Below, piece after piece: positions 19,949-57,530 of a DNA stretch of 64,000 bases. The position numbers were made by a program, and so were the translations under genes. The stretch is taken from positions 62,001 to 126,000 of the forward strand of contig NZ_CP035502.1 in NCBI RefSeq assembly GCF_004135585.1. The letters run 5' to 3'. How positions within the stretch are numbered: the first letter of the stretch is position 1; every line of letters begins with the position of its first letter. Below the pieces are notes generated by a model that searched no databases, was not told the DNA's origin, and saw only the letters and a list, made by a program, of their open reading frames with translations. The DNA comes from Sphingosinicella sp. BN140058 (lineage in GTDB: Bacteria; Pseudomonadota; Alphaproteobacteria; Sphingomonadales; Sphingomonadaceae).

Positions 19949-20872
19949 TTAGCCTGTCAGCTCGCCTTCGAGCAGCGTATCGTAGGAATGGTCAGCGCTG
20001 CTTCGTGGTAGCTCCGCGGATGGTTCTCCCGAAACGACGAACGGGTTGCGCTGTGATCCTGCAAGCATCTCGCGGCCGCGACCGGACGGCCGCGCTGCTG
20101 TGACCGATCCGGAGGCGCCGACTGTGAGGCTCAGAGCCGGTCTCGTTGGATCGAGTAAAGCCAAGTCGCCGGCTTCGACAATCGGTTGCTGAATCGCCGC
20201 GTCGTAGGCCATGGAAGTCGGGGCAGTGATCGTCTGCATCCAGTAGCGCCCGCGGGGTAGTTTGATTGCCGCCCGAGCAGCAGCGCGGACGTAGACAGTG
20301 GCGGCGTGTTGCCAGGGCCGCGAGGTATCGCCGGTGGCGATGTAGAAGAGAATCATGCGGTTCGAAAGGCTGCTGTGATTTGCGATGGTCACGGGGAGGG
20401 GCGGTTCCCCCCGTCGAGCAGTGATCTTCCAGTCGACGCGATTGTTTTGCGGAAACCAGGCTGCCTCGTCCACAAGTGGGGTGCTCTGCGGCGCCATAGA
20501 TACGGCCGGCGAGGAGCCACGAGAGACGTCCTGAAGGCGGAACACCTGGCCTCTGTTGCGAAGGTGATCAGGTAGGGAAGACTGGGGCGGCTCCGCCCGG
20601 GCGGATCTCCACGAGAGGACGCTTTCGCTGACCCCGTCCGAAAGCATACCGGCTGCAATCCCGCCGAGGAACATGATCGAACCAACGACGGCCAGGCGCA
20701 AGGGCGCGCTCAGACGTCGCTTGGAAGGCGAGGTTGGAACCGGCCTGAGCCTACGAGACGTGTGCGCTGTCTGCGGCCATGGGGAGTGTGACGCAAGCGA
20801 TCCGTCCGCGATGTCGAGCGTGTGGAGGCCGAAAAGCTGGGCGAGATCGCGGGGGCGGCGTCCGTCGGTCAA
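19949..20872 (-). CDS. Single-pass membrane protein, paralogue B of the RseP cluster
   Basis: About 307 residues from a probable TTG at 20870-20872 (AGGA ten bases upstream, just after the previous stop); the start is uncertain. A cytoplasmic N-tail of about 60 residues is followed by one membrane helix (LRLAVVGSIMFLGGIAAGML) and a periplasmic region. The region contains AAWFPQNNRVDW, NHSSLSNRMILFYIATG, AATVYVRAAARAAIKLP and RGRYWM, which align with the protein at 21665-22483. The two are therefore paralogues sharing a beta-sandwich-like module (a polar repeat ending in VRA..xIxLPxGxY). The last 60 residues are low complexity. Function unknown; the topology suits a site-2 protease substrate or an envelope subunit. 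Confidence 0.65.
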   Translation of the reverse strand: MTDGRRPRDLAQLFGLHTLDIADGSLASHSPWPQTAHTSRRLRPVPTSPSKRRLSAPLRLAVVGSIMFLGGIAAGMLSDGVSESVLSWRSARAEPPQSSLPDHLRNRGQVFRLQDVSRGSSPAVSMAPQSTPLVDEAAWFPQNNRVDWKITARRGEPPLPVTIANHSSLSNRMILFYIATGDTSRPWQHAATVYVRAAARAAIKLPRGRYWMQTITAPTSMAYDAAIQQPIVEAGDLALLDPTRPALSLTVGASGSVTAARPSGRGREMLAGSQRNPFVVSGEPSAELPRSSADHSYDTLLEGELTG

Positions 20873-20891
20873 TTTGTCGCGGTCCTGTGGA

Positions 20892-21353
20892 TCAAATTTC
20901 GCGGGGTTGGTTCCCCGGCGCTGGATCAAAGGAAGGCTTAGGAGCTGCCTTTGGTTCCGGCGGCATGATGAGGATTGAGGGCGGCGTTGATCGGTTGTCC
21001 GGGACTGGGACGATTCCGTCGGGCGCGACATGCTTCACTTGCATCAGCAGCGTGTTGAACTCGCCGTTCGTGACCGGGTGAAGGCGTCTGTTTTGGTCGC
21101 GGGTCTCAAAATATCGCATGACGAAGGCTTGGCCAGCGGGGCTGAGGCCCATAATCTCGGCCTTCATGCGAGACGGAGCGGCGGGCTGGCGGTGTTCGTA
21201 TAGCGTCAGGCCCAACGACAGAACGGTGACGAACGATGCCGCCGCGATCGCTGACAGAAGACGGATGTTCGCTTTGCGGAGCCCAAGGAGAACGAGGAAT
21301 ATGAGTCCGAGCGCTAGGGCGAAGGTCATGCCGCTCAGCGCATATAGGCCCAC
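20892..21353 (-). CDS. Two-helix membrane protein, 153 aa
   Basis: Two N-terminal membrane helices (about 5-25 and 30-52) lead to an external region of 100 residues. That region has a helical part (GLSPAGQAFVMRYFETRDQN), a VTNGEFNTLLMQVKHVAPDG segment, and a Pro-rich tail. No family is recognised. It sits between the two paralogous single-pass proteins, 19 bases before paralogue B, so it is probably part of the same membrane complex. Confidence 0.65.
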   Translation of the reverse strand: MGLYALSGMTFALALGLIFLVLLGLRKANIRLLSAIAAASFVTVLSLGLTLYEHRQPAAPSRMKAEIMGLSPAGQAFVMRYFETRDQNRRLHPVTNGEFNTLLMQVKHVAPDGIVPVPDNRSTPPSILIMPPEPKAAPKPSFDPAPGNQPREI

Positions 21354-21359
21354 CGGGTC

Positions 21360-21575
21360 CTACGAGAGCGTGTGTGGCTGGTATGTGGGCATTCCGCTCT
21401 GCGCTGCTGGAGAGCGGAATTTGGACATCATCTGCGCCCGCATAATGGCTGCGTGGCGCCGGTGCAGATGCACTCGAACTTCGGAAGGTTGCTGGAGCAG
21501 GTTCACGAGGGCGACAATCTCTTGAGGGTCCGGACCCGCAACGGAATGTCGCGAACGGTGACCTCTTTTCCGCAT
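21360..21575 (-). CDS. Possible small basic protein, 71 aa
   Basis: A 71-codon frame fills the gap between the two-helix membrane gene (start 21353) and paralogue A (end 21665). An in-frame stop lies 16 codons upstream, and no good ribosome site precedes the ATG. The central part (PQEIVALVNLLQQPSEVRVH) looks like a real amphipathic helix; the ends are basic and low in order. It may be a genuine small protein or chance. The rest of the 311-base gap shows no other gene. Confidence 0.35.
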   Translation of the reverse strand: MRKRGHRSRHSVAGPDPQEIVALVNLLQQPSEVRVHLHRRHAAIMRAQMMSKFRSPAAQSGMPTYQPHTLS

Positions 21576-21664
21576 ACTCGAACGGACGTCGCAAGCTTTG
21601 GTTTCGGGGGGGTGTTCTCAGGTGGGACAATTCGCGTGGGTAAAAACCCTCCCCCCATCGAGCG

Positions 21665-22483
21665 TCAGACTTCGTCGGGATCGGTCTCGTAAGAGATCTC
21701 GTCGTCATCCAGCGCGGCCGCAGGCTCCTCGGACTGCGCGGCCGCCGATTCCTTCTTCCGCGGGGAAAATTCTTTGATGACCGGTTTTTTGACCTGCCGG
21801 ATCTGGCCATCTTCGTCGAGGAAAAGGCGATCCTCAGGGATTTGGCCCTGCGCGGCAGAATGGAGCGGTATGGAAAATGTTGGGACCGGGGTTTGATCCT
21901 TGGCCTTTTCCCAGGGCAGGTCAGAAGGGGTTGAGGCAACGTCGATACGATAGTCGCCTAGTGGCAGCTGGATGATTGCCTGCTCGCCGGCGCGTACGTA
22001 GAGGATTGCCGCTTGGCGAGGGACGCCAGCCTCAATCAGCTGGAAGATCAGCCTCCGGTTTTGGGTCCGGCTTTCGTTGCGGATGTCTAGGGAGGCTGGT
22101 TGCTGCCCAATCGGCAAAGACGTGGACCACTCGACCTTGTTGTTGTCCGGATACCAAGCAGGGGTGGTATGTTCATCTGCGCCCGCGGCGGCATGGTCGA
22201 TCAGGTCGACGGGGCTTACGGTGCTTGGGGCGGCTTTCCTTGACGCGAGATTGTACGCGTTGAGAACCTCGAGAGATCCGTCGATCGACATCCCTGCGAA
22301 GCCCCCCAACGCGAGTGCAAGGATGGAGGTCGCGATGGTGAAGGCCCAGCCAGGCCCCCGTTCGACGATCACAGTTTCAGGTTCGGCAGGACTCGCCTGA
22401 GCGAGCCGGCGGGGCGGCGTCGATTGGTCCTGGGGAGATCCGGCGACCCGGAGGCCAGCGGGCGCGTCAATCGTCATGCTCAT
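21665..22483 (-). CDS. Single-pass membrane protein, paralogue A of the RseP cluster
   Basis: 272 residues. A 45-residue cytoplasmic tail precedes one helix (WAFTIATSILALALGGFAGM); the rest should be periplasmic. The module AWYPDNNKVEWSTSL, IRNESRTQNRRLIFQLIEAG, AAILYVRAGEQAIIQLPLG, DYRIDV matches paralogue B at 19949-20872 block by block. The C-terminus is acidic and ends in a run of Glu/Asp. Its start overlaps the RseP-like gene by four bases (ATGA), so the two are translationally coupled. The N-in, single-pass layout is what site-2 proteases usually cleave, so it may be a substrate or regulator of its neighbour (inference). Confidence 0.7.
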   Translation of the reverse strand: MSMTIDAPAGLRVAGSPQDQSTPPRRLAQASPAEPETVIVERGPGWAFTIATSILALALGGFAGMSIDGSLEVLNAYNLASRKAAPSTVSPVDLIDHAAAGADEHTTPAWYPDNNKVEWSTSLPIGQQPASLDIRNESRTQNRRLIFQLIEAGVPRQAAILYVRAGEQAIIQLPLGDYRIDVASTPSDLPWEKAKDQTPVPTFSIPLHSAAQGQIPEDRLFLDEDGQIRQVKKPVIKEFSPRKKESAAAQSEEPAAALDDDEISYETDPDEV

Positions 22484-23544
22484 GAGAGTGCCAGTATGTC
22501 CAAAGTGATTGCGAATACGGCCATTGCGATGATGATGATGAGGCCGACCTTCAGAAGGCGCTTAGCGGTTGGGACGGAAATGCTCCGACGCAGCATGCCC
22601 TCCACAGCGTAGGTCGCGAGGTGTCCCCCATCGAGCGTAGGGATGGGCAGCAGATTCATCACGCCAACCGCGATCGAGATCATTGCCATCATGTAGAGGA
22701 AGGGGAGCGTGCCCATCGAGAGAGTGTGCGCTGACATCTTCGCTATTCGGATCGGGCCGGAGAGCTCTTTCACCGAACGATCGCCTTTGACGATCTGGCC
22801 CATCGAGGTGAGCTGGGCATAGGTTGTGAATGCGCCGTCGGAGACGCCTTTCGTGATCGCGGCGCCGATCGTTGGCGAGCGTTCGAAAGCCTTGGGAAAT
22901 TCGATTCCCAGGAATCCAATCTTCGCGCTGTTGCCCATCCCGTCGTCGTAGATGCGTGAGCCTAGTCTGGGGGTGACCTCCAGGCGAGAGGCGTCCCGCA
23001 TGAAGGAGACCGATGTCGGTTTGCCGGGCATCAGCATCACGAGCTGAGTAACGTCGCTCGCGAGGACAACGTTGAAGCCGCCGATCGCCTTGATCTCGTC
23101 CCCAGGTTGCAGGCCAGCAGCGGCAGCGGGCGACCCGGGAGTGACGGCAAGCACGATTGGGCGCCCTGACGGGTAGCCGTAGGAGTAGGCGATCACAGCG
23201 AAGAGGGCGGCGGCGAGAACGAAGTTGATCGCAGGTCCCGCCGCAACCACAATCGCGCGTTGCCAGCGGGGAAGGGCGTTTAGCGTCTTCTGCCCGGGTC
23301 GGAGATCGTCGTTCTCCTCTGGGAAGCGAACATAACCTCCGATCAAGAATGGTGAGATTCGCCAGTCCGTGCCCCAGCGGTTGATGCCAAGCAGGCGCCT
23401 GCCGAAGCCGATCGAAAACACTGTCCCGACGAGGCCGAACGCGCGGCCGGCTGCGTAGTGGCCAAACTCATGAACGGTCACCACGATGGAGATCATCAGG
23501 ACGAATGCAGCAAGGGTGGAGAGAAGGTCGGTCATATCGTCCAT
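22480..23544 (-). CDS. RseP-like site-2 intramembrane protease (M50)
   Basis: 354 residues. The zinc-binding HEFGH motif is at 25-29 in the first membrane helix, and the LDGG motif (LLPIPTLDGGHL) is near 300. Between them lies one PDZ domain (PGSPAAAAGLQPGDEIKAIGG); chromosomal RseP of E. coli is about 450 residues with two PDZ domains, so this copy is shorter. Four membrane helices are expected. Family members cut anti-sigma factors and signal peptides inside the membrane. Here no sigma or anti-sigma gene is near, while two single-pass paralogues are in the same operon. The start may be ATG 23533-23535, which would give an ATGA overlap with the upstream gene instead of the 13-base overlap listed. 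Confidence 0.88.
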   Translation of the reverse strand: MDDMTDLLSTLAAFVLMISIVVTVHEFGHYAAGRAFGLVGTVFSIGFGRRLLGINRWGTDWRISPFLIGGYVRFPEENDDLRPGQKTLNALPRWQRAIVVAAGPAINFVLAAALFAVIAYSYGYPSGRPIVLAVTPGSPAAAAGLQPGDEIKAIGGFNVVLASDVTQLVMLMPGKPTSVSFMRDASRLEVTPRLGSRIYDDGMGNSAKIGFLGIEFPKAFERSPTIGAAITKGVSDGAFTTYAQLTSMGQIVKGDRSVKELSGPIRIAKMSAHTLSMGTLPFLYMMAMISIAVGVMNLLPIPTLDGGHLATYAVEGMLRRSISVPTAKRLLKVGLIIIIAMAVFAITLDILALS

Positions 23545-23918
23545 CTCGCAGGGACGTCGCTGGCGGCGCAGCGGACCAGGTAGTGGAAGCAGGCGCGATC
23601 TAGCCGGACATCCGGGAGATGGCAGAACCGGGGTAACTCAGCGGCAATGACCTGCGCCAGCGCTCGCCCGGCCGCCGACGAAAGTTCCTCCTCGTCGAGC
23701 ATGACGACTTCGCCGTCGTGCTCGATCGGGCAGACCGGCCGGTTGAGGATGGGGTGGGTCTCGAACGAGAGCCGTTGTAGGACTCGGGACATCGACGCGG
23801 CTGCCTGGGCTTCGGTGCGGGAAAGCCGGAACGGATGAACGTCATGAAGGCCAGAAGCTGGTGAGTACAAGCCGGCGGCGAACCCGGATGATGAGCCACT
23901 ATCGATCGACCGAGCCAA
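23532..23918 (-). CDS. Hypothetical protein, first gene of RseP operon
   Basis: 128 residues from a TTG at 23916-23918 with a strong AGGAGAG six bases upstream. It is soluble, with a helical N-terminal half and a His/Cys-containing C-terminal part (RFCHLPDVRLDRACFHYLVRC) that could bind metal. I do not recognise it. It overlaps the RseP-like gene and opens the operon that runs to 19949. The recurrent box CAGGGAAAATATGAC lies 43-57 bases upstream of the start. Confidence 0.6.
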   Translation of the reverse strand: MARSIDSGSSSGFAAGLYSPASGLHDVHPFRLSRTEAQAAASMSRVLQRLSFETHPILNRPVCPIEHDGEVVMLDEEELSSAAGRALAQVIAAELPRFCHLPDVRLDRACFHYLVRCAASDVPARWTI

Positions 23919-23960
23919 GCGGATCTCTCCTGAGGAGGGGAATGACCATCGCGGAGGGTG

Positions 23961-26263: not shown

Positions 26264-26551
26264 ATGCGTCGATATGGCGCCATCGCGGTCCTCGTCGCCC
26301 TCTACTGGGTCGCGGCTCAGTTGGGGGAAACCTTCGGATCGACGCTTTTCATCATGTCGGTGTTCTTTTGGACGCTCGCGGCAGGAATGTTCGTGTTCCT
26401 GGTGCTTTTTAGGGGCCTGACACTGCGGCTCTTTTCTAAGCCAGCGGCTGAGCCGGAGGACGACGTGTTAGAAGAGCAGGGTGGAGGCGAGTTTGGTGAT
26501 GATGGCGAGGATCGGGGCCGTGTAGTCGCGCTTCCAGCCTCCCCACGATGA
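26264..26551 (+). CDS. Small membrane protein, 95 aa, virB6 operon
   Basis: Two adjacent membrane helices (YGAIAVLVALYWVAAQLG and LFIMSVFFWTLAAGMFVFLV) are followed by a 40-residue acidic cytoplasmic or periplasmic tail. It starts one base after the upstream stop and its own stop overlaps the start of virB6 (ATGA), so translation is coupled. It may assist VirB6 in the inner membrane. No known family. Confidence 0.65.
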   Translation: MRRYGAIAVLVALYWVAAQLGETFGSTLFIMSVFFWTLAAGMFVFLVLFRGLTLRLFSKPAAEPEDDVLEEQGGGEFGDDGEDRGRVVALPASPR

Positions 26552-27885
26552 GGTTCGCGATGAAGAAGCTTTTCATTATTTTGGCCCTGATGTTCGGCGC
26601 GATGGCGTCGTTCTCTTCGTCGGCCATGGCGCAGACGGCGCCGAGTCCGACCCCGTCTACTGTCCCGGTGGACGACGGCTCGCCGAAGCCGGGTATGGAT
26701 GCGTCATGGACGCTCGCTCAGTGGAAAGCCGGCATGTCCTCGAACGAAGGGTGCTGGGGATGCAAACTGCTGATCGTCATGACGCAGGTGATCACCGAGG
26801 TTGGGGAAAAGGGTGAGGAGCAATTCAAGACGCCTGCGCTGCAGGCGCTCTCGGCGTTCATGAGCGTCTGGGTTACCTGGCAGCTGTACCTCTTGATGAG
26901 CCCCAGCGGAGCAGTGGGTGCTCAACAGAGTATCAATGAGATCTTTCAACGTCTCGTTGTCATGATGATCGTCATGTTCCTGCTGAGCCAGGGGACGTTC
27001 TCCTATCTGATGGTCCAGTGGATCAATCCGACACTTGCTGGGATGATGGGAGCTGGAGGTAAGCTTCTCGGCGGGGGAATGGACCTGTGCGGTTACGACG
27101 TCGGCGGAGACCCGTTGGCTACGCAGGGCGTTAATCTGATGTGCAAGATGCACAAGACGATGAGTACCGGTTTGGCGTTCGGCGGCTACATGGCGGACTC
27201 GGCGGTGTTCGAGATTGGGCTTGGTGGGGCTCAATTCGAGCTGTTACAGCTGGTGGGCGGGGTCATCCTTTTCGCCGCGTTCTTTATGATGATGCTGCTC
27301 CTCCCTCTGCGTTTGTTCGATGCCATGCTTCGAGTTGGTGCAGTTTCGTTCGTGTTGCCCTTGGTGGTGCTAGGCTATCAATTCAAACCGACGAGAGGTG
27401 TCGTGAAGCAGGCCGTCACGTCGGTGTTGGCGGCCGGTCTCACGTTTATGTTCACGGCGTTGGCTGTGAGTATCGCGATCCAGGTTCTTGATCAGATTCT
27501 TGGGCCAGTGTTCGACGTGGAGATCAACGAGACGAACCGGGATGTGTTGGGACCGATGGGAGTGCCCGACTTTCTGATCTGCTTGGCGAGCGCGATCGGC
27601 ATCTCGGGCTTCATCAAGGCGGCGGGGTCGATGGCGACCGAGTTCGCGGGCTTCCAGGGATCGATGGGCAGCGTTGGGAAGGCTACCGAAGGGTTGATCG
27701 GTGACGCTACCAAGTTCGGTGCTCAGAAGGCTGGCGGCGCAACAGCGAGCGCCGGTGGTTTGATCGGCGGCGGCGCGGCGCAGGCAGGGAAGGCTGTCTG
27801 GTCTGGCGCGAAAGGGGCTGTAGCCGCGCGGCCCGGCGCTGCGCCGGACGGGGTCGGGAAAGCAACGAGCAATGGGGCTCGCTGA
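26548..27885 (+). CDS. virB6: VirB6/TrbL-like inner-membrane channel protein
   Basis: 445 residues. A signal-like N-terminus (MKKLFIILALMFGAMASFSSSAMA) is followed by a periplasmic segment with CWGCKL, five or six membrane helices spread over about 95-350 (for example LQLVGGVILFAAFFMMMLLL), and a Gly/Ala-rich tail. This is the VirB6/TrbL plan, the polytopic core of the type IV secretion inner-membrane complex. It is the only VirB6 in the window and completes the VirB set of the operon at 45-58 kb. A strong terminator follows. Confidence 0.85.
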   Translation: MRFAMKKLFIILALMFGAMASFSSSAMAQTAPSPTPSTVPVDDGSPKPGMDASWTLAQWKAGMSSNEGCWGCKLLIVMTQVITEVGEKGEEQFKTPALQALSAFMSVWVTWQLYLLMSPSGAVGAQQSINEIFQRLVVMMIVMFLLSQGTFSYLMVQWINPTLAGMMGAGGKLLGGGMDLCGYDVGGDPLATQGVNLMCKMHKTMSTGLAFGGYMADSAVFEIGLGGAQFELLQLVGGVILFAAFFMMMLLLPLRLFDAMLRVGAVSFVLPLVVLGYQFKPTRGVVKQAVTSVLAAGLTFMFTALAVSIAIQVLDQILGPVFDVEINETNRDVLGPMGVPDFLICLASAIGISGFIKAAGSMATEFAGFQGSMGSVGKATEGLIGDATKFGAQKAGGATASAGGLIGGGAAQAGKAVWSGAKGAVAARPGAAPDGVGKATSNGAR

Positions 27886-45013: not shown

Positions 45014-47110
45014 TCAGTATGCAGCGGGCTCCTGAACGCCGGCCAGGGCGACCTCGGCCAGGCCACGTTCCTGAATGTTGGAATCGAGCTCCTGCTCGCG
45101 GCGTAGTTTCTCCAGCCACTCTGCCTGACGCTTGAGCCGGATGTGCTCCGGCAGCGGATTCGCCGGCGCCGGGCCCTTCTTGGTCCGCGGGTTATAGACC
45201 TTCTTGAGCATCTTCTCGTCCTCGAAGAAGAACGGGCTCTGGACCTTCATCGGACGATTGAGGAAGCTCTGCGGCAGGACGAGCTGGGTGCCAGGGTCCA
45301 TCGCCGTGATGTCTTCCATGCGGAGGAATTCGACACCTTCGGATGCGATGCTCTCGTTCTTGGCGAAGGGATTCGCCGACTTGGAGAGGCCGGCCTGGCG
45401 CGAATGCGACGATTTGCGGATGGTCGTCTTGCCGACGGTCTTCTGGTAGTGGGCAGCCGTCTCAGCATCGTTCTGAGCGAGCAGGACCGTGACACCGCAT
45501 GTGGAGTCGATGATCGTGCCGTCTTCCTTCGAGTAGGTCTTCACCAGCTGCGAACGGGCCTGAAAGATCAGCCAATAGGAGACCTTCTTAGAGCGCCCGA
45601 GGTCGGGCCCGGTGAGGACCGTTTCGGATTTCGGCAGTTTCGCGAACTCGTCCATCATGAAGCAGATGGTCATCGGGCCCATGACGCGGCCGCGCTTGTC
45701 GCGCTCGCCCGGTCCGTACGAAAGGAAGTCGCGGCTGAGCACCTCATAGAGGAGGGCGGTGATGTTGGCGAACGCCTGTGCCTCGGCCTGGTTGACGCAG
45801 ATGTAGAGGGTGACCGGAAGCCACTCGCCCGTATCCGGGTCCTGCATCCCGCGGAGGTCCATGCTCGTGAAGTCGCAGGCTGACGTGCGTTCCTTCACGG
45901 CCATGTTTTTGAACGGGAGCATGGCCGCGTCCATGGTGCCGAGAACGCCTGAGCGCTCCTTGTCTGCCATGTCGATCAGCGGCGCGATCGAAGTGAAGGC
46001 GCGCTGCGAGTAGCCGCCGGCGTTGATCTGCTCGACGAGACCGGTGAGGAACATCTTCATGCCGTCGGCAGTGGGCAGCTGCTTGTTGGCTGCAGCCTCT
46101 CTGTTCGCTTCCTCGGCCTTCTTGCCGGCCTGGAACTGCGCGTCGGCGATCCAATCGACGAGCATCGGCAAGGAAGCCTCCATGCCGCGCCACTGCGTTG
46201 GGATGCCTTCGTACGAGCGGTGATCGTTCACATGGCTGACAAGGTAGTGCATGAAGCCCGTGAGGCAGTCACGACCCTTGTCGGTGAAGTATTTGTCGCC
46301 ACCCTTCGTGTCCGGAATGAGGACCTTGGCGACAGCATCGAGGTAGGTGTCGCGCTCCGCGGTGTTTGCGGGCGGGACCAGGTCCGTCGAGAGGAAGTTG
46401 AAACGCGGGTAGAAGATGCCCTCGTGGGGCTTATCGGTCGCAGACCAATCGATGATGAACACGAAGCCGATCTCGGCCCGGTAGCCGGACGTCATCTCCG
46501 CAAGCTCGGGTTTGGGGTCGTTCACGATCATCGACACCGTGGGCGACTCAACGATGGACGGCACCACGATCGCCGCGGTCTTACCGGCGCCGGGAGGGGC
46601 CGGGATCGCGACAGAAATCGGTTCGATCAGCCGGATGTATTTCCCATCCTTCCACTTGCCGAGGATGCCGACGTAGCCGCCTCTGATGCCGATCTGCCGC
46701 CGGCCTTCCATGCGCCGGATGTCCTTGTCGACCGCCCAGCGGACGTCGCCGTGCGTCATCTCGAAAGATTTGTACGGGCAGACGGCATAAAAGATCGCGG
46801 CAACGAACAGGGCGCTCAGGAAGCTGACGCCGAAGCAAGCGAAGCCAGCTTCCCAATGCAACTTCCAAAGGGAAGAATGGGCGTTCGCGATGTAGTTCGG
46901 CTCACCGAGGTGCGAGAGATAGTCAGCGGTCCAGCGCCAAGCGGTCTGGTCGAAGCTGCGCTCCATTGCCCAGTAGACGAGCGGAGCAACGGCCATGAAG
47001 AGGCAGAAGGAAAAAATTCCTAGCGCGATGGTAGCGACGAGCCAGCGGACCCAAAGATCCTTCTCGCGCCGCATATGTTCGGGGCTGAAGGTTTCGCTCT
47101 GAATGGACAT
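45014..47110 (-). CDS. virD4: VirD4/TraG coupling protein
   Basis: Hexameric ATPase that brings the relaxase-DNA complex to the secretion channel. 698 residues. Two or three N-terminal membrane helices (about 22-45, 85-110) are followed by Walker A PAPPGAGKTAAIVV near residue 170 and Walker B ICFMMDEFAKLPKS near 485. The typical SLW/VND segment appears as SMIVNDPKPELAEMTSGY. The C-terminus is charged and helical. It is the last gene of the virB operon and may also have its own promoter upstream (CATAAT at 47138-47143, minus strand). Confidence 0.93.
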   Translation of the reverse strand: MSIQSETFSPEHMRREKDLWVRWLVATIALGIFSFCLFMAVAPLVYWAMERSFDQTAWRWTADYLSHLGEPNYIANAHSSLWKLHWEAGFACFGVSFLSALFVAAIFYAVCPYKSFEMTHGDVRWAVDKDIRRMEGRRQIGIRGGYVGILGKWKDGKYIRLIEPISVAIPAPPGAGKTAAIVVPSIVESPTVSMIVNDPKPELAEMTSGYRAEIGFVFIIDWSATDKPHEGIFYPRFNFLSTDLVPPANTAERDTYLDAVAKVLIPDTKGGDKYFTDKGRDCLTGFMHYLVSHVNDHRSYEGIPTQWRGMEASLPMLVDWIADAQFQAGKKAEEANREAAANKQLPTADGMKMFLTGLVEQINAGGYSQRAFTSIAPLIDMADKERSGVLGTMDAAMLPFKNMAVKERTSACDFTSMDLRGMQDPDTGEWLPVTLYICVNQAEAQAFANITALLYEVLSRDFLSYGPGERDKRGRVMGPMTICFMMDEFAKLPKSETVLTGPDLGRSKKVSYWLIFQARSQLVKTYSKEDGTIIDSTCGVTVLLAQNDAETAAHYQKTVGKTTIRKSSHSRQAGLSKSANPFAKNESIASEGVEFLRMEDITAMDPGTQLVLPQSFLNRPMKVQSPFFFEDEKMLKKVYNPRTKKGPAPANPLPEHIRLKRQAEWLEKLRREQELDSNIQERGLAEVALAGVQEPAAY

Positions 47111-47137
47111 GGGAGTTCCTCTAAGATCTCTCTACCA

Positions 47138-47192
47138 TTATGGGAGATTGGTCCCGCTGTCGAACGGAAGCTGGATCCTTTGTGGATCTTTT
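47138..47192 (-). promoter_or_regulatory. Possible virD4 promoter
   Basis: On the minus strand TTCGAC and CATAAT stand 16 bases apart (47138-47165), about 30 bases before the virD4 start. Just upstream is AAAAGATCCACA (47181-47192), one of the recurrent boxes of this window. Confidence 0.35.
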
Positions 47193-47279
47193 GAGCGCTG
47201 GCGCGGCTGGCCGCTTGGACGTGCAACAGTGCAAAGCGCCAGCCGGAGGCATTCAGGGCCCAGCTGGTGCTTTGGGGTG

Positions 47280-48344
47280 TCAGGCTGCGATCGTAGTGGC
47301 CGCCGCGTGGTGAGCGGCCTGCTGGTCCCTCGGGACCGGTGCTTTGATATCCGTGATGACGCGAGCGCCGCCCATATCGCGGCTCATCTGGATGATGCAG
47401 AAGTTCTCGCGGATTTTCTCAATTGTCTTGGCGCGATCTAGGTTCGGAATGCAGCCGGAAATGCGCTCGTAGAGCACGTCATAGCAATCCGTGACGCTCG
47501 AGGCGTGGATTGTCGTCATCATGGCGCCGTGACCGGTTCCAGTGAGCCGCCAGAGCGTGCCGGCGTTTGTCGTCGAGATCTCGCCGACGAGCACGATGTC
47601 CGGCGTAAAGCGCATGATGACGTCGATCGCGTCGTCGTAACCGAAGATCGAGTTGCGGTCGGTGCGAGAGAGAACAAGGTGCGCGTGATTGTGGTGCTTC
47701 GGCAGCTTGATCTCGCGCGTGTCCTCAACGGTGATGATCCTGGTGCGCGTGTCCACCTCTTCCAGGATGCGGTTGAAGAGCGTCGTCTTGCCAGTCGACG
47801 TGCCGCCGGAGATGAGAATGTTGCAGCCCTGCTGGACGGCATCCTTCAGAGCTCTGATGGCATCCAGCACGGGATCGTGGATCGTCGGAAGGTGAGCGTG
47901 CCCCTTTTGAACGCCGCGGCCTTCGACGAGGCCCCAATCGGAAAACTCGACCTGGTGGGACCGGCTGGCCTTTGCTCCTTTGCGGATGCAAATGCCGATG
48001 CCACCCTCGGGAAGGGTTTGATCATAGACCATGTGATTGCCGGCGATCGCAGCGAACCGGTGGTCGAAAGGCGGCAGAGTGGCGAAGACCGTCGACGGCT
48101 TCTTCGGGTCGTCTGGATTGAACTTGTGACCAAAGGTGTTCGCGATCGCCTGACAGAGCGTCCGGAGGTACCGCAGCGTCAGCGCTGGGTCGTTGTGACG
48201 GACCCAGATCCGGTTGTACGCGTCTGGCTTGTTACGGCGACACCAGACCTCACCAGGCTGGTTGACGGCGATCTCCTCGTAATGATCGCGCATGTAGTAT
48301 TTTTCGAGCGGGGCGAGCATTCGCTCGATGGTTGCGAGGCTCAT
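47280..48344 (-). CDS. virB11: VirB11 secretion ATPase
   Basis: Ring ATPase that powers and switches the channel. 354 residues from ATG 48342-48344, one base after the virB10 stop; the open frame upstream of the ATG belongs to the overlapping strand. Walker A is GGTSTGKTTL near residue 180, the Asp box TVEDTREI follows, Walker B is DIVLVGEI, and the His box is GHGAMMTTIHA. The N-terminal domain (about 1-150) is typical. It is followed by a 170-base gap to virD4. Confidence 0.95.
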   Translation of the reverse strand: MSLATIERMLAPLEKYYMRDHYEEIAVNQPGEVWCRRNKPDAYNRIWVRHNDPALTLRYLRTLCQAIANTFGHKFNPDDPKKPSTVFATLPPFDHRFAAIAGNHMVYDQTLPEGGIGICIRKGAKASRSHQVEFSDWGLVEGRGVQKGHAHLPTIHDPVLDAIRALKDAVQQGCNILISGGTSTGKTTLFNRILEEVDTRTRIITVEDTREIKLPKHHNHAHLVLSRTDRNSIFGYDDAIDVIMRFTPDIVLVGEISTTNAGTLWRLTGTGHGAMMTTIHASSVTDCYDVLYERISGCIPNLDRAKTIEKIRENFCIIQMSRDMGGARVITDIKAPVPRDQQAAHHAAATTIAA

Positions 48345-48345
48345 C

Positions 48346-49992
48346 TTAGTTCGAGTTCCAAGGAGGAGTTGATCCGGTCGCAGGGATATTTTCGGCCGGG
48401 AATGGATCCTCCTGGCGCCGGGCGGCCTGCCTCGGCTGCGGCGTGTCATAGCCGCTATCATCGGAACCGGCGTACCGAGGAGCGAATTGCGGAGCGCCGC
48501 TCCCGGCGTTCTGAGCTCGCGGGTAGGACTGCACTTCCTGAACTGGTCCCTGCATCGGGCGCATAACGATATCCATGGTCGGGATGATCGTGACGCGGGT
48601 GCCGGCGGGCACGGTGACAATCGGTTGAACGTTGCCGGTACGCTGCTGGATGTCGCTGGTGATCTTCTGCAGGTCCTGACGAACGATGTCGCTGATGATG
48701 GCGCCGTTGTTGCGGGCTCCACCGGAACCGGAGCCCCCAATGTTGATATCGCCGCTGGGCTGCTCTTCAGCCTTGAAGGCAATCGCCGTTCCAGCGCCGA
48801 AGATGGTGCCCAGAAGGATGCTCCCATAGCGCTTGAGGAGGCGCTCGTTGCGTCGGCCGGGCACGCCGGCTTGTCCCATGGCGTCACCAGCCGTCGCTTG
48901 GATGATGAGGCGTGCACCGTCCGGACGAATGATCTGGGTCCACGAGACGGCCATACGCTCGCCGCCGCCGCTGGCGGTGCCGATGATTTGAGAGCCGCGC
49001 GGGATTAGAACGGCTCGGCCATGAGCGCCGTAGACGTTGCGATCGACTTGAGCGACGACCTGCTGAGTGCTGCGACTGTCGAAAGTGCGAGCAAGGACCG
49101 CGGTGATGACGCGATCCATGGTGACGACGCGGCTCATGTCCTGCGGATAAGAGGACATAGACGTCGGGATCTTGAGGTCCGCCCAGGTGCCCTGCGGCTG
49201 CTGTGGCTGGGTGTTGGCCCGTCCTCGAGACTGCACGCCTCCAAGAACTGCCTGGCGCCGGGCGAGGAGAAATTGCTCTCGTGGCGAGAGGGTCGGCTGC
49301 GAGACCGGAACTTGCGGTTGCGTGTATTCGGCTACCGGAGGCGGCGCAGCGGTGTCCGGCGTCCCCGCTGGCGGGGGCGTGGCCACCGGACCGTATGGGT
49401 CCAGGCCAACCGGGGCCGTTGCGCCCGGGATGAGCTGGCCCGCAACTCCGGCGGCGAGAGCGTTTGCATCCGGAGGAAGGATCTTGGCGCGCGCTTCTAC
49501 AGGCAGCGTCGCACCGCCGGGGGTGCGGCTGTTGCCCTGCACGAGCAACTCAGGCTCCACGTAGGGCATATTCGGCTGCTGCTGCGGCGCGGGCAGGGAC
49601 GGGTCGAAAGTGACGGTTGCTGTGCAGCGCTGGCCCATGGGGAGCGGCTTCCCGGCCGTGCAGTCGGTGGTGAGTTTGAGGCGCGGATCGCCGCCGGTGA
49701 TTTGGATCGTTCCCGGCGTGAAGTCTTGGAAGAGTGCGGAAATGGCCGCAGCTTTCTCGATGCTGCCGCTCGGAGCGCGCTCGAGTTGAATTTGGATTGG
49801 ATCGATTGAAACGATGCCAGGCTGCTGCTTTGCATCCTTCAAGGTCGGCGCGGACACGGTCTCGTAGGGTCCTTTCGCGACAGCCTCTTCTGAGGGGCTC
49901 ATCGCGACCATCAGGACGCCCACACCGGTGGCGAGGACGGCGGTCATGATGCCGCCGCCGATCAGGAGCTTCTTCTTCTGCTTGCTATCCAC
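48346..49992 (-). CDS. virB10: VirB10 with an inserted Ig-like domain
   Basis: Core-complex protein spanning both membranes. 548 residues. One helix (KLLIGGGIMTAVLATGVGVL) is followed by a periplasmic region. Residues about 61-169 form an unusual insertion (GTIQITGGDPRLKLTTDC, LPMGQRCTATVTFDPS) resembling a choice-of-anchor D / Ig-like module with a Cys111-Cys123 pair. Then come a Pro-rich linker and the VirB10 C-terminal domain (VQVDRNVYGAHGRAVLIPRG, SWTQIIRPDGARL, GGARNNGAIISDIV). Start and end overlap neighbours tightly, so it is in the virB operon. Confidence 0.9.
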   Translation of the reverse strand: MDSKQKKKLLIGGGIMTAVLATGVGVLMVAMSPSEEAVAKGPYETVSAPTLKDAKQQPGIVSIDPIQIQLERAPSGSIEKAAAISALFQDFTPGTIQITGGDPRLKLTTDCTAGKPLPMGQRCTATVTFDPSLPAPQQQPNMPYVEPELLVQGNSRTPGGATLPVEARAKILPPDANALAAGVAGQLIPGATAPVGLDPYGPVATPPPAGTPDTAAPPPVAEYTQPQVPVSQPTLSPREQFLLARRQAVLGGVQSRGRANTQPQQPQGTWADLKIPTSMSSYPQDMSRVVTMDRVITAVLARTFDSRSTQQVVAQVDRNVYGAHGRAVLIPRGSQIIGTASGGGERMAVSWTQIIRPDGARLIIQATAGDAMGQAGVPGRRNERLLKRYGSILLGTIFGAGTAIAFKAEEQPSGDINIGGSGSGGARNNGAIISDIVRQDLQKITSDIQQRTGNVQPIVTVPAGTRVTIIPTMDIVMRPMQGPVQEVQSYPRAQNAGSGAPQFAPRYAGSDDSGYDTPQPRQAARRQEDPFPAENIPATGSTPPWNSN

Positions 49993-50020
49993 AACTCGAT
50001 CCTTTGGCGCGCGCGCGTTA

Positions 50021-50042
50021 GGGCGCCGCTCTGGCGGCGCCC
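50021..50042 (-). repeat. GC-rich hairpin between virB9 and virB10
   Basis: GGGCGCCGC at 50021-50029 pairs with 50034-50042 around TCTG. It lies within the operon, so it may lower transcription of the downstream genes or stabilise the upstream message. No U-tract. Confidence 0.4.
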
Positions 50043-50047
50043 CTGTC

Positions 50048-51340
50048 TCAGTTTACCGAGACGACCGAGCAGGACCGGCCGGAAGCGGTCATCGCCTTAC
50101 AGACCGCCACGCCCTCCGAGAGCCCGTAGAACGGACCAACGCGGAGGCGAACGTCGCCGGGGCGAGCGTTCGCATCCAGCGTGCCGCCGGTGCGCAGGGA
50201 AGTCGCGTCCGGGAAGCTGGCTTCGCTGGCAGACAGGAGGGAGGCGTTCTGAGCTTTGATGGTCAGGAACGTCTTTTCCATCGACGGACGATCGCCGGCG
50301 CCGAGGTCGACCATGTACTTGCGCCCCGTAGACGGGGAGGAGAGCGACGGAGGGAGCACTTGGCCATCGGCAACGCGCAGGGTCGCCTGCGGCGTCGTGA
50401 CGGGCTGGTTGAAAGACCGGATCTGGGGCGGGCGGTTCGTCTGGCGTTTGATGCAGACAAGTTTCTGACCGTTCCGAAGCACGATGTCGCCCACGCCCTC
50501 GACTACCAACATGCGGCCGTTCGGCCCGGCAGTCCTGACGTTCACGGGCGTCTCAACGCCCTGAACAACGAGGCTGGCGACCGGCCACTCGTTCAAAGCA
50601 TCTGCGTTCGAGCCATAATCGATGTACGTGAACTGGCCATCTCGGAAGACGCGTTCCGGCGCCACGCCCGCCGAGTGATCCTCCGGGACGAAGATCGAGA
50701 GGTCGTGGACGATGTTCTCGGGCTTGAATCCGATGGTGCGGAGCCAGTCAGATTCGACCTTCAGATCAGAGGCCGAAGCCGTTCGGGAAAGCCCGCCCAT
50801 GTTGGCGGGCATTCCGTTTCCCCTTCCGGTCACCATGATGTCGACCGACATGTCCGTGATGATCTTGGTGTTCGCACCTTCGCCGCGGATATAGAACTGG
50901 TACAAGTTGCCAGACTTGCCCATGGCGATGAGATTGCCATCGGCGCCAGGTCGTATCACGCGGATCATCACCACGTTCGAGCGTGGGATGATAGCCTCGA
51001 AAGAGACCGGGTCGGAGTTGAAGACGTCTTCGATGATTTCGTCGGCCGGGAAGCGAATGGTCGTGTTCATCGCCTCCCGGAGGCGGAGCGGGATCACGCG
51101 ATCGGGCCGAAACTCGAAACGATTATAGCCGGGCGACTCCTGGTTGGCAGCTTTGTTCGCACCGGGATTGGACCACGCGTTCTGAATTGCGCCGACTGGC
51201 TCCAGATAGCTGTCGTTGATGGTTCCATAGTCGCCGGCGGCTTGAGCCTTCTGCTGTTTGCTGGGAGCAGCTACGGCCGGGGCGGCGACCGAGAGAGCCA
51301 TCGCAGATACGATGGCGGTGAGGATGATCTTGCGTGCCAT
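50048..51340 (-). CDS. virB9: VirB9 with a C-terminal SPOR-like domain
   Basis: Outer-membrane core-complex protein. 430 residues, longer than typical VirB9 (about 290). A signal peptide (MARKIILTAIVSAMALSVAAPAVA) precedes the VirB9 N-domain (SPGYNRFEFRPDRVIPLRL, VFNSDPVSFEAIIPRSN) and a C-domain (DLKVESDWLRTIGFKPENIV). The last 90 residues (about 340-430) look like a SPOR domain: KYMVDLGAGDRPSMEKTFLT and VRLRVGPFYGLSEGVAVCKA. SPOR domains bind denuded peptidoglycan, so the fusion could anchor the channel to the wall. Confidence 0.85.
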   Translation of the reverse strand: MARKIILTAIVSAMALSVAAPAVAAPSKQQKAQAAGDYGTINDSYLEPVGAIQNAWSNPGANKAANQESPGYNRFEFRPDRVIPLRLREAMNTTIRFPADEIIEDVFNSDPVSFEAIIPRSNVVMIRVIRPGADGNLIAMGKSGNLYQFYIRGEGANTKIITDMSVDIMVTGRGNGMPANMGGLSRTASASDLKVESDWLRTIGFKPENIVHDLSIFVPEDHSAGVAPERVFRDGQFTYIDYGSNADALNEWPVASLVVQGVETPVNVRTAGPNGRMLVVEGVGDIVLRNGQKLVCIKRQTNRPPQIRSFNQPVTTPQATLRVADGQVLPPSLSSPSTGRKYMVDLGAGDRPSMEKTFLTIKAQNASLLSASEASFPDATSLRTGGTLDANARPGDVRLRVGPFYGLSEGVAVCKAMTASGRSCSVVSVN

Positions 51341-51367
51341 GTTGGTGTCCTGCCGTAGTGTTGGACG

Positions 51368-52093
51368 TTAGTCGCGCCGGGCGTCGGTGTTATCGACGAC
51401 GGTCATGCCGAACGGATTGTTGAGACGGTCGGAGTATCGGACATTTTTCGGTTCGAACGTGACCGCGTAGGTGCTGACCCATGACTGAGACTGAGGGGCA
51501 AGGGTCGCGTCAGCGATGGCTCCCTCAGCCTGGTCGGTGGTCATGTATTCAACCTGCCAGAGATTGGGTCCGATCTTCCGCACGGAGTCGATCCGGACGT
51601 TTCTGATCATCCCCGACGCGCGAAGCCGATCGTAGTCGGCTTTCATTGCCATCCCGAACTTGCCGTACGCCTCTGGCGTGCTCATCAGCTCGAGCACCGA
51701 GCCTGGGCCCCAATTTATCGTTTGCTCGGCGGCCGAAGCGACGATCGAGTAGCGCTTCGTCACGTAGTTCCGGAGGTTGATTTCCGTGATGTAGTCGTTG
51801 GTCGGGCTCTCGAGTGTGGCAGGGTTGATTCGAATGATTTCGTCCCCGCGGCTGTTTCCGGTGACGACCATCGGAACAATCTTCTGCAGCGGCATGAGGA
51901 TCGCGAGAGCGAAGCCCTGCGCTGCCACGACGAAAGCGAGAACGACGGCGATAATCGTCATCCAGCGAGCCATTGCGGCTGCGCGGCGCGCGGGAAGTGC
52001 GTCGGTGTCGTATTCGAGCGGAAAGGCGCCGATCTGGTCGGCGCTGGCAGGCGCCGCGTCGGCGCCCTTGGCCAGCGTCACGGGAGCGTTCAT
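51368..52093 (-). CDS. virB8: VirB8 inner-membrane protein
   Basis: Nucleates the channel in the inner membrane. 241 residues from ATG 52091-52093 (overlapping virB7 by four bases). A cytoplasmic tail of 40 residues, one helix (WMTIIAVVLAFVVAAQGFAL), and a periplasmic domain (ITEINLRNYVTKRYSIVASA, SVRKIGPNLWQVEYMT, WVSTYAVTFEP) match the VirB8 fold. It precedes virB9 in the operon. Confidence 0.9.
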   Translation of the reverse strand: MNAPVTLAKGADAAPASADQIGAFPLEYDTDALPARRAAAMARWMTIIAVVLAFVVAAQGFALAILMPLQKIVPMVVTGNSRGDEIIRINPATLESPTNDYITEINLRNYVTKRYSIVASAAEQTINWGPGSVLELMSTPEAYGKFGMAMKADYDRLRASGMIRNVRIDSVRKIGPNLWQVEYMTTDQAEGAIADATLAPQSQSWVSTYAVTFEPKNVRYSDRLNNPFGMTVVDNTDARRD

Positions 52094-52299
52094 GCTCGAA
52101 CCGCAGCGTTGTCGGAGGCGAGGAAGGGGGGGAGACCCGATTTCGACGGCAGCTCGACACAGGCGCACGGGGTGCGCTTGAGCGAGTTGGGCGTGCTCCC
52201 AGCAGACATTGGGCGAGACTGGAACTTCGCGCCCTCACCTCCGCAGCCGGCCAGAACGAATATCGCAGCGAGTGCGGCCATCATACGCATCGGGATCAA
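52090..52299 (-). CDS. virB7: VirB7-like lipoprotein
   Basis: 69 residues. MAALAAIFVLAGCGGEG contains the lipobox LAGC, so the protein is exported and lipid-anchored, as VirB7 is in the outer-membrane core. The start could be any of three in-frame Met codons in the first seven. The mature part has two more Cys residues (CACVEL) that may bond to VirB9. It overlaps virB8 by four bases. Confidence 0.75.
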   Translation of the reverse strand: MIPMRMMAALAAIFVLAGCGGEGAKFQSRPMSAGSTPNSLKRTPCACVELPSKSGLPPFLASDNAAVRA

Positions 52300-52392
52300 A
52301 ACTCCGCTTCTTATTCGGAGGGCGCGCGTAAGGCGGTACCGCCAAGGCGGTGACCGTCCTCCGATCTGGCTACCCCCCTGGGAACCTTATAG

Positions 52393-52469
52393 TGTGGATC
52401 TTAGAGGAGGGAGGAGTTGCGTCAACATCTTTTCCCCCCATCCACTAACAATCCAGACTTTTCCCTGAC
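52393..52469 (-). promoter_or_regulatory. Regulatory region upstream of virB7-virB11
   Basis: On the minus strand CAGGGAAAAGTCTGGAT lies at 52453-52469 and a variant CTAAGATCCACA at 52393-52404, followed by TATAAG. The 52539 gene ends 70 bases away behind a terminator, so a new transcript for virB7-virB8-virB9-virB10-virB11 may start here. Confidence 0.45.
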
Positions 52470-52477
52470 CTGACAAA

Positions 52478-52510
52478 AGGGAAGGGGCGGCCCTTTCGAG
52501 CCGCCCCTTC
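52478..52510 (-). terminator. Hairpin terminator after the VirB5-like gene
   Basis: GAAGGGGCGGC at 52481-52491 pairs perfectly with 52500-52510 around an eight-base loop; on the minus strand CCTTTTGTC follows. It divides the virB operon after the second VirB5-like gene. Confidence 0.8.
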
Positions 52511-52538
52511 GGTCTTGAGGAACTTTGCGAGCGCGGAC

Positions 52539-53921
52539 TTACTGCGAGGAGAAGGTACTCGCCAGGAAGCGATCCCGTTGAGCTCGAAGAAGGGGCGATG
52601 CACCGTCGAGGCTTGCCTTGAGCTGATTGACTTCCGTCGTAGCGGCGGTGATCGCCGCTTGGAGGGCGGCCGGGTCGGATGCCTTGACGCCAAGAGCTTC
52701 GTCGAAATCGGATATCGCCTGCACGGTGGAAGCCTCAATGCCGACGGCGTCATTGTTGAAGCCTGCGAAGAAGGCCTCCTGCTTGAAGGCTTCCGCGCGC
52801 TGCTGCAGGAGCTTGCTCCAGCCGTCGCTCACGTCGCCATTCACCATCGCATCAAGCCGACGCTCGGCCGCTTTGGCGGCGGCTTCGGTGATCTTCTTCT
52901 TCGAGGGATCGTCCCACGTGGTGCGGTCGTTCGCTTGCATGACCATGTTTGCGGCTTGCATGAGCGAAGCGGCAGACACGCCCTTACGACGCGCTTCCTG
53001 CGTAGCCAGGCTCGCGACGGCGGCCTGACTTGTCGCCTTGGCCTGAACCATCTGTTGGTACATGGCTTGGGTATCTCGAACGCTCTTCTGGCCACTGCGG
53101 AGGCTTTGCATCACGCCCAACGCTTGCTTGAGGGCGACGAGCTTCGTTGCAGCGTTGACCAGCTTCCCAAAATCGATGTTTGCTTTGAGACCGGCAGCGT
53201 CGGCGGCTGGCTGGACTTCCGACGCTTCGGTCCGCTGGAGAGGGGCGGGGCCGCTGGCATCCGTCGCCGCCAAGGCGTCCATCGCATGAAGGTTGGAGCG
53301 GTAAGACTGCAGCGTTTGCAGATCGATCATAGCCTTCGTGACGAGCGAGCTGATCTGAGCTCGGTGATAGAGCGACTCCCGCACGCCCGCATCTTCTCCC
53401 TTCGCTATCGGCGGGCGGCTCATGCATGCCAGGTGCTTCGCGGCGAGGATGGTACCGGCTTCTACCTGGGCTTTCATGGCTTGGGCCACTCCGAAGGCGT
53501 CGCCGGCAGCTGCGCGCTGCCGCAGGCGATCGTCAGCCTCTTTCGCCTCGTAGCCGTCCTGAGTGTCGGGATGCTGTTGCAACGAGCCGCTAAGCTGATT
53601 TGCGGCCTCGCTGAAGGAGACTTTGGGCGCGTCCAGTCCAGGGAGCTTTCCGATCGAGATCGAACCCTGCCCGGTGATCGGGCCAACTTTCCCGAGTGCA
53701 CTCTTGATGTCGGTGGCCGATTGCACCTGGGCGACCGCGTTTTCGAGCGCCTTCTTTTTGGCAGCAATCTCCTTGGCCGTTGTCGCAACAGCCGAGGTGT
53801 CGATCACAATGCAAGGCGGAGGCACCAGCGTTGGACATACTCCAAGCTGAGCTTCCGCCGGTGATGAGAGGGCGCAAGCCACCGCGAGGGTCGCGGCGCC
53901 CGCAAGGATACGAGCGCGCAT
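52539..53921 (-). CDS. Large periplasmic VirB5-like protein, 460 aa
   Basis: Signal peptide MRARILAGAATLAVACALSSPAEA, then a helical protein with many Ala/Gln and a coiled-coil look (AKEIAAKKKALENAVAQVQS; LVNAATKLVALKQALG). It shares this plan with VirB5, the minor pilus protein, but it is nearly twice the usual length. It lies four bases from the VirB5-like gene. It may be a second tip or adhesion subunit. Two N-terminal Cys (VCPTLVPPPCIV) could form a disulfide. Family assignment is inference from position and composition. Confidence 0.6.
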   Translation of the reverse strand: MRARILAGAATLAVACALSSPAEAQLGVCPTLVPPPCIVIDTSAVATTAKEIAAKKKALENAVAQVQSATDIKSALGKVGPITGQGSISIGKLPGLDAPKVSFSEAANQLSGSLQQHPDTQDGYEAKEADDRLRQRAAAGDAFGVAQAMKAQVEAGTILAAKHLACMSRPPIAKGEDAGVRESLYHRAQISSLVTKAMIDLQTLQSYRSNLHAMDALAATDASGPAPLQRTEASEVQPAADAAGLKANIDFGKLVNAATKLVALKQALGVMQSLRSGQKSVRDTQAMYQQMVQAKATSQAAVASLATQEARRKGVSAASLMQAANMVMQANDRTTWDDPSKKKITEAAAKAAERRLDAMVNGDVSDGWSKLLQQRAEAFKQEAFFAGFNNDAVGIEASTVQAISDFDEALGVKASDPAALQAAITAATTEVNQLKASLDGASPLLRAQRDRFLASTFSSQ

Positions 53922-53925
53922 TGTC

Positions 53926-54684: not shown

Positions 54685-54773
54685 GAGGATTCCCTCTTGC
54701 TTGAACAGGAACATCTGAATGGTAGCTCGCCCGGCGGATCGGCGATAGCCACGCAGGAAGATTTTTCCGCGGC

Positions 54774-57501: not shown

Positions 57502-57530
57502 GGTCGTTTCCTTTGCGGTCGGCGGGTAGA

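What the first reader, a model, noticed from the sequence alone, without database searches (positions are those of the whole stretch)
19949..23918. Site-2 protease operon with two paralogous single-pass membrane proteins
An RseP-like M50 protease (HEFGH, one PDZ, LDGG) is coupled by a four-base overlap to a single-pass protein whose periplasmic module recurs in a second protein at the end of the operon (WYPDNNKVEW versus WFPQNNRVDW; YVRAGEQAIIQLP versus YVRAAARAAIKLP). Both have the N-in, one-helix layout that site-2 proteases usually cut. A two-helix protein lies between them. There is no sigma or anti-sigma gene, so this is not the classical RseP system. I infer an element-borne membrane signalling or quality-control unit, possibly tied to conjugation.
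Basis: partly seen in the sequence, partly recalled or inferred. Interest (0 to 1): 0.8.

Follow-up and report, generated by a model that had tools for sequence, protein, structure and literature searches.

The report
Plasmid membrane protease with paired partners
A large conjugative-type plasmid carries its own membrane-cutting protease next to two related membrane proteins whose outer domain is elsewhere joined to another protease or to a chaperone domain, which hints at a membrane protein-control unit that has not been described.

Summary
An intact-looking RseP-like M50 site-2 protease (one PDZ) overlaps by 4 bp the gene of a single-pass protein (P1); a true paralogue (P2) lies downstream. 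The window is part of a 347-kb plasmid. The core (small gene, M50, P1, P2) recurs at the same backbone position on one other plasmid, of Erythrobacter aureus (33 of 57 window ORFs match it). The M50 is not a recent copy of the host's rseP. This partner type was found nowhere else.

New here: the partner module is a divergent branch of a wider family without a Pfam or NCBIfam model (hhalign 96.8%, score 66.6; 100 shuffles reach 19.9). That family is mostly single-pass proteins beside MobF/TraD genes on sphingomonad plasmids, without M50 beside them. It is also fused to retropepsin-like proteases in two domain orders (one full-length in 8 of 61 genomes) and to a J domain.

Best reading: P1 and P2 are membrane-tethered recognition or regulatory partners of a plasmid-borne protease rather than signalling substrates. 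Interaction, substrate and any role in transfer are untested.

The parts
23532..23918 (-). Small soluble protein at the head of the cluster (TTG start 23918; ATG 23792 also possible)
   Evidence: Homologue of the 108-aa gene upstream of the E. aureus M50: BLASTP 6e-17, 37% over 91 aa; no Pfam or NCBIfam family
22480..23544 (-). RseP-like M50 site-2 protease, HEFGH / LDGG, one PDZ; start probably 23535
   Evidence: Pfam M50 5.7e-57, TIGR00054 3e-67; best solved relative 7w6y, 5.4e-55; 55% to E. aureus plasmid copy
21665..22483 (-). P1: single-pass protein with periplasmic module (module about 21800-22160)
   Evidence: 4-bp overlap with M50; paralogy 2e-13; found by the A6 profile at 21932-22162, E 3e-7
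20892..21353 (-). Two-helix protein between P1 and P2
   Evidence: Two hydrophobic stretches; no counterpart found in the E. aureus stretches
19949..21031 (-). P2: paralogue of P1 (ORF start 21031; likely start TTG 20872)
   Evidence: E. aureus orthologue 35% over 227 aa
19100..19654 (-). DUF2726 gene, the next gene after P2; context, not shown to belong
   Evidence: Pfam DUF2726 3.9e-20; DUF2726 is also the immediate neighbour of the wider module family in 4 of 10 plasmid loci
24390..25763 (-). SLT lytic transglycosylase (VirB1-like); conserved neighbour, context
   Evidence: Pfam SLT 2.5e-6; 50% to E. aureus
26548..27885 (+). VirB6/TrbL-like T4SS protein; conserved neighbour, context
   Evidence: Pfam TrbL 3.4e-5, 24.2 bits, just below the cut-off of 25.9; only E. 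aureus matched among plasmids
45014..62125 (-). T4SS block and MobA/MobL relaxase of the same plasmid; context
   Evidence: VirD4-, VirB10-, VirB9-, VirB8-, VirB4-like and MobA/MobL by Pfam

Best explanation
A plasmid-encoded envelope proteolysis unit. Shown: an apparently intact RseP-like site-2 protease is coupled to P1 and kept with P1, P2 and a small soluble protein at the same backbone position of two diverged plasmids. Shown: the P1/P2 module is a divergent branch of a wider family that is fused elsewhere to retropepsin-like proteases in two orders and to a J domain. Inferred: P1 and P2 sit beside the protease in the inner membrane; their periplasmic beta-sandwich binds a client or a signal; their helices bring the client to the M50 active site or gate access to it, so they are recognition or regulatory subunits. 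Further inferred: the clients are envelope proteins or signal-peptide remnants of the plasmid's T4SS, or host proteins that have to be cleared for transfer.
For: Coupling and order kept in both plasmids although M50 is only 55% and the partners only 33-35% identical. Partner and M50 were found only together: the one other plasmid record with the partner also has the M50. The plasmid M50 pair groups at 100% and falls outside the 20-row group of the own, same-genus and two same-family copies (quick tree), so it is a long-kept plasmid gene. Module relationship: hhalign 96.8%, score 66.6, against at most 19.9 in 100 shuffles, 14.1 reversed and 15.2 for M50; A6, built without window rows, finds P1 at E 3e-7. 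Fusions: Azonexus protease-module (Pfam 1.3e-21); TM-module-protease full-length in 8 of 61 genomes; J domain-TM-module. No family model matches P1 or P2, so no known output domain to release.
Against: Only two plasmids, of one backbone family. Most relatives of the module have no protease next to them (10 of 10 plasmid loci without M50; 19 of 27 matches are protease without the fusion). The module may be a general-purpose extracytoplasmic domain, so its fusions need not tell its role here. P1 and P2 lack the C-terminal W-G / FG..T signature of the wider family, and A6 did not find P2. The helix region is not more conserved than the module: P2 12 of 29 against 44 of 100, P1 11 of 38 against 41 of 99. 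No interaction was tested.
Confidence: 0.4

Rival explanations
1. Bystanders: P1 and P2 are envelope components of the transfer system, like their relatives beside MobF/TraD genes; the M50 is merely co-located and does separate membrane housekeeping.
For: The wider family sits by MobF/TraD genes in 9 of 10 loci and has no M50 beside it in 10 of 10. DUF2726 follows P2 in the window and adjoins the wider family in 4 of 10 loci. No plasmid accession is shared between the 35 records and the 60 of 64 M50 records listed.
Against: 4-bp M50-P1 overlap and gene order kept in both plasmids; module-protease fusions elsewhere.
Confidence: 0.25
2. Substrates: M50 cuts P1 and P2 in the membrane after a first cut of the periplasmic module, as a signalling or turnover step.
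For: One-helix layout with helices rich in Gly and Ala; co-encoding. In C. crescentus, PodJ is cut first by PerP in the periplasm and then by MmpA (PMC10202637 and PMC10790692, passages).
Against: No recognised cytosolic output domain; tails short in E. aureus (about 20-25 residues before the helix, by eye); no site-1 protease gene beside them; E. aureus P1 helix below the hydropathy threshold.
Confidence: 0.2
3. The M50 is chiefly a signal-peptide or pilin-remnant peptidase for the plasmid's T4SS, with P1 and P2 as its local scaffold.
For: Known M50 activities include signal-peptide cleavage and Eep-dependent sex-pheromone production in enterococci (PMC10202637, passages). T4SS genes lie close by.
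Against: The host's own RseP-like protein could do this; nothing found here is specific to it.
Confidence: 0.1

Closest known systems
RseP / MmpA-type site-2 proteases (M50B, TIGR00054)
   Same: Catalytic HExxH and LDGG, PDZ, overall length; TIGR00054 above cut-off
   Different: Plasmid gene, one PDZ instead of the two of E. coli RseP, own partner pair, no sigma or anti-sigma gene in the ORFs scanned
Unnamed single-pass module family beside MobF/TraD on sphingomonad plasmids
   Same: Helix, linker, FP motif, beta-rich VYVRA...P.G.Y block; DUF2726 neighbour in some
   Different: P1 and P2 lack the W-G / FG..T signature, come as a pair, and sit with M50
Module fused to a TIGR02281 retropepsin-like protease (Azonexus; genus g470) or to a J domain (Acinetobacter)
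   Same: Related module; membrane-linked proteolysis or chaperone theme
   Different: One polypeptide, other enzyme class; relation to P1/P2 is through the wider family
SpoIVFB-SpoIVFA-BofA complex of B. subtilis
   Same: M50 protease controlled by two membrane partners inside the membrane (PMC9042235, abstract and outline)
   Different: No sequence relationship tested; the two-helix gene here is not conserved in E. aureus; SpoIVFB carries a CBS domain in place of PDZ (recalled)
PerP-PodJ-MmpA cascade of C. crescentus
   Same: An alphaproteobacterial M50 acting after a periplasmic protease (passages)
   Different: No PodJ or PerP gene here; that PerP is a retropepsin-type aspartic enzyme is recalled and was not confirmed

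Membership tests
RseP-like M50 site-2 protease | Family score above curated cut-off | tested here: met
   TIGR00054 227.3 bits, cut-off 147.55; Pfam M50 193 bits, cut-off 27.2
RseP-like M50 site-2 protease | Catalytic HExxH and LDGG motifs | tested here: met
   HEFGH and LDGG in window and E. aureus copies
RseP-like M50 site-2 protease | Two PDZ domains (E. coli-type RseP, PRK10779) | tested here: not met
   One PDZ region; PRK10779 161.1 bits, cut-off 477
RseP-like M50 site-2 protease | Intramembrane proteolytic activity | not testable with these tools
   Needs an assay
RseP/sigma-E type regulated proteolysis system | Sigma and anti-sigma genes beside the protease | tested here: not met
   None in 47 of 57 picked ORFs; 10 not scanned
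Wider single-pass module family (A5/A6) | Profile similarity | tested here: met
   hhalign 96.8%, shuffle control; A6 finds P1 at 3e-7; P2 not found directly, linked through P1
Wider single-pass module family (A5/A6) | C-terminal W-G and FG..T signature, invariant in A6 | tested here: not met
   Absent from P1, P2 and the E. aureus pair; the A6 match to P1 covers positions 5-77 of 134
SpoIVFB-SpoIVFA-BofA type regulated M50 complex | Conserved two-helix partner | tested here: not met
   Two-helix gene not found in the E. aureus stretches
SpoIVFB-SpoIVFA-BofA type regulated M50 complex | Physical complex that gates the protease | not testable with these tools
   Only single chains could be folded here

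The most novel reading that the evidence does not exclude
The module is an uncatalogued membrane-tethered periplasmic sensor or client-binding domain shared by several envelope proteostasis devices (site-2 protease, retropepsin-like protease, J-domain chaperone), and this plasmid uses two copies as dedicated subunits of its own site-2 protease to remodel the host envelope for conjugation.
Probability: 0.25. Interest if true: 0.75.

Novelty: new variant of a known kind. Interest (0 to 1): 0.55.

Why it matters
How site-2 proteases choose substrates, and which partners control them, is known for few cases. If P1 and P2 are such partners, a compact plasmid system makes the question testable, and it would be a conjugative-type plasmid that brings its own intramembrane protease. 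The module also ties a set of unannotated plasmid envelope proteins to proteolysis and chaperone domains.

Tried and rejected
Close relatives by pattern scan: M50 in genome contigs, partner module in genome contigs, partner in viral contigs gave no confirmed relative; partner in phages none. These scans use narrow peptide patterns, so they show absence of close relatives only. Partner profile in whole genomes: only the own genome in 60 relatives and in 396 of the order. In the family draw 5 of 397 at E 0.01: the own genome, two leads that proved real for the wider family (L021, L022) and two that read as chance (L023, L024). In the class draw 3 of 385: the own genome and two that read as chance (L025, L026). 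The draws overlap. Wider module A6: 4 of 299 in the phylum draw and 2 of 60 relatives, own genome included in both.

PRTRC cassette, suggested by the Pelobacter neighbour: only a ParB similarity below cut-off; rejected. Ubiquitin-like (ThiS) reading of the small protein: E 0.027 in E. aureus only; not pursued. Genes beside other plasmid M50s (Bosea twice, Microvirga, Pelobacter, Geobacter, Thermovibrio, Teredinibacter) were searched with the module profile: no hit. Module profile against solved structures by sequence: one hit at E 1.8, chance. Fold search: generic beta-sandwiches (2mca, transthyretin, domains of cholesterol-dependent cytolysins), low TM-scores, as most of the model is disordered. 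Helix conservation as a sign of a protease interface: not distinctive. The careful M50 tree did not finish; the quick tree is used and it warns of long branches, the window pair with Microvirga among them. The module tree is also a quick one; it supports the P2 pair (97) and leaves the P1 pair unresolved. The second permitted structure job was not used.
Full report
WHERE IT LIES. The window is G000:C2:62001-126000; C2 has 347,485 bases and C1 5,722,500. Genome G535, of the same family as the host, has a 310,228-base second contig with a gene 100% identical to one on Rhizorhabdus wittichii pSWIT01, also 310,228 bases, so the host is in the same GTDB family as Rhizorhabdus (inference). The window has VirD4-, VirB10-, VirB9-, VirB8- and VirB4-like genes above Pfam cut-offs, VirB6- and VirB5-like ones below them, an SLT transglycosylase and a MobA/MobL relaxase, with many DNA and nucleotide metabolism genes.

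THE CLUSTER. On the minus strand: small soluble ORF 23532-23918, M50 22480-23544, P1 21665-22483, two-helix ORF 20892-21353, P2 19949-21031 as ORF. M50 and P1 overlap by 4 bp. If M50 starts at 23535 (MTDLL, against MTDFL in E. aureus) it also overlaps the small gene by 4 bp, as in E. aureus. P2 has few start choices; TTG 20872 with AGGA upstream is the best placed. No sigma-70-like promoter was found in 19600-24100, and no terminator-like site on the minus strand between P1 and the two-helix ORF (consensus scans only).

CONSERVATION. E. aureus plasmid NZ_CP031358.1 (408 kb) has small gene-M50-P1-P2 in this order between the virB6/transglycosylase block and ligA, with recJ and radA genes interspersed. 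Of 57 picked window ORFs, 33 match two stretches of that plasmid by tblastn; two of the 33 (47103-47441 and 47505-48566) run antisense to its VirB11-like gene and are probably shadows. Identities: M50 55%, P1 33%, P2 35%, small gene 37%, VirB4 73%, VirD4 82%. DUF2726 and the two-helix gene had no match in those stretches. The partner matched no other plasmid record (1 of 72,556).

THE PROTEASE. It is 41% identical to the copy on C1. In a quick tree of 69 rows (59 genome rows, 10 from plasmid records) the window and E. aureus proteins pair with 100% SH-aLRT support and lie outside the 100%-supported 20-row group of the own copy, 17 same-genus copies and two family copies. Deeper placement is open: the careful search did not finish and long branches are flagged. 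Other large plasmids carry M50 genes (Bosea twice, Microvirga and others), without this module beside them.

THE MODULE. P1 and P2 have no match in Pfam, NCBIfam or PHROGs up to E 1. The alignment of the four modules (A2) gave weak hits in two sphingomonads. One of these proteins matched 35 plasmid records, 33 of them of Sphingomonadales genera, 20 typed conjugative. I aligned 11 (A5). hhalign of A2 against A5: 96.8%, score 66.6, E 2.3e-10 for this single comparison; 100 column shuffles reach at most 19.9, the reversed alignment 14.1, the M50 profile 15.2. A6, 10 rows without the window, found P1 in the own genome at E 3e-7; P2 did not reach the limit. The match covers model positions 5-77 of 134. 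The W-G and FG..T signature of A6 is absent from P1 and P2, so they are a divergent branch. Within the four partner modules orthologues are closer (36%, 38%) than paralogues (28-31%); the P2 pair has 97% support, the P1 pair is unresolved. The duplication therefore most likely precedes the split of the two plasmids.

CONTEXT OF THE WIDER FAMILY. In ten plasmid loci (L086-L095, flanks 1.5-6 kb) no M50 is annotated; a MobF or TraD-type gene is near in nine (not in L093); DUF2726 is the immediate neighbour in four (L086 by Pfam; L089, L090 and L095 by annotation). In the window DUF2726 follows P2 after 294 bp. None of the 35 records is among the 60 M50 records listed; four of its 64 were not listed.

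FUSIONS. Azonexus L085:5494-6309: retropepsin then module (Pfam gag-asp_proteas 1.3e-21, TIGR02281 above cut-off). L101:5228-6265: helix, module, retropepsin (2.2e-20, TIGR02281 above cut-off). Of 61 genomes of the latter's family 27 match, 8 with the full-length fusion (E 1.5e-92 or better, all in one genus) and 19 with the protease part only. All 8 fusions have an N-terminal helix, the module and DTG[AS]; three show a second hydrophobic stretch at the catalytic site. Acinetobacter L113:1416-2381: J domain (6.4e-19), helix, module (71.4 bits). L103: CxxC...CxxC N-terminus (by eye), helix, module, next to a J-domain gene. L102 and L104 appear to start with a signal peptide (by eye). No M50 lies in the four 10-12-kb stretches L101-L104.

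STRUCTURE. AlphaFold2 of P1 with P2 as the only other row: mean pLDDT 55.1, 82-90 over residues 131-200, almost all beta; the helix region is not modelled with confidence. PDB neighbours are generic beta-sandwiches.

MECHANISM. With no known output domain on P1 or P2, release of a regulator is not favoured, though an unknown one is not excluded. The module has been joined to proteolytic and chaperone domains in at least three architectures, which favours client binding or sensing. Coupling to M50 then suggests a protease with dedicated partners. Everything from binding onward is inference. The helix region is about as conserved as the module in P2 (12 of 29 against 44 of 100) and less so in P1 (11 of 38 against 41 of 99), within the range seen in the wider family, so it says little.

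LITERATURE. Held open-access library only. Site-2 protease + conjugative plasmid + RseP: one paper, a bacteriocin review (listing only). Intramembrane protease + plasmid-encoded + conjugation + M50: none. Site-2 protease + conjugation + plasmid + pheromone: three. Site-2 protease + plasmid-borne + type IV secretion: none. I saw no description of such a unit in these. Seen: passages of PMC10202637, one passage of PMC10790692, abstract, outline and passages of PMC12239564 on retropepsin-like proteases in P. aeruginosa stress tolerance, abstract and outline of PMC9042235.

VERDICT. Observation confirmed; interpretation partly supported; a new variant of a known kind. What is new is the plasmid-specific pairing and its tie to a wider module family that the searched libraries do not name.

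Noticed in passing
window 47103-48566: The ORF picker chose plus-strand ORFs here that run antisense to the place where E. aureus has its VirB11-like ATPase; the real gene is probably on the minus strand.
   Followed up: partly
window 15069-43638: Plasmid carries a nucleotide and DNA metabolism set: thymidylate kinase, NAD-dependent ligase, RNase HII, UvrD-like helicase, dUTPase, both ribonucleotide reductase subunits, CHC2 zinc-finger protein, topoisomerase.
   Followed up: no
L005:7693-10125 and L006:8147-10116: On two Bosea megaplasmids a different M50 gene sits beside a DUF1849 gene (predicted envelope protein); these two M50s form their own fully supported pair.
   Followed up: partly
L008, L009, L010: M50 genes also lie on plasmids typed MPF_F of Pelobacter, Geobacter and Thermovibrio, so plasmid-borne M50 genes next to transfer systems may be a wider pattern.
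   Followed up: no
L113:1416-2381: Small Acinetobacter plasmid protein with J domain, one helix and the module; a second Acinetobacter plasmid record matches too.
   Followed up: partly
L103:5641-7578: In a same-genus genome a CxxC...CxxC-helix-module protein lies 9 bp from a J-domain gene.
   Followed up: no
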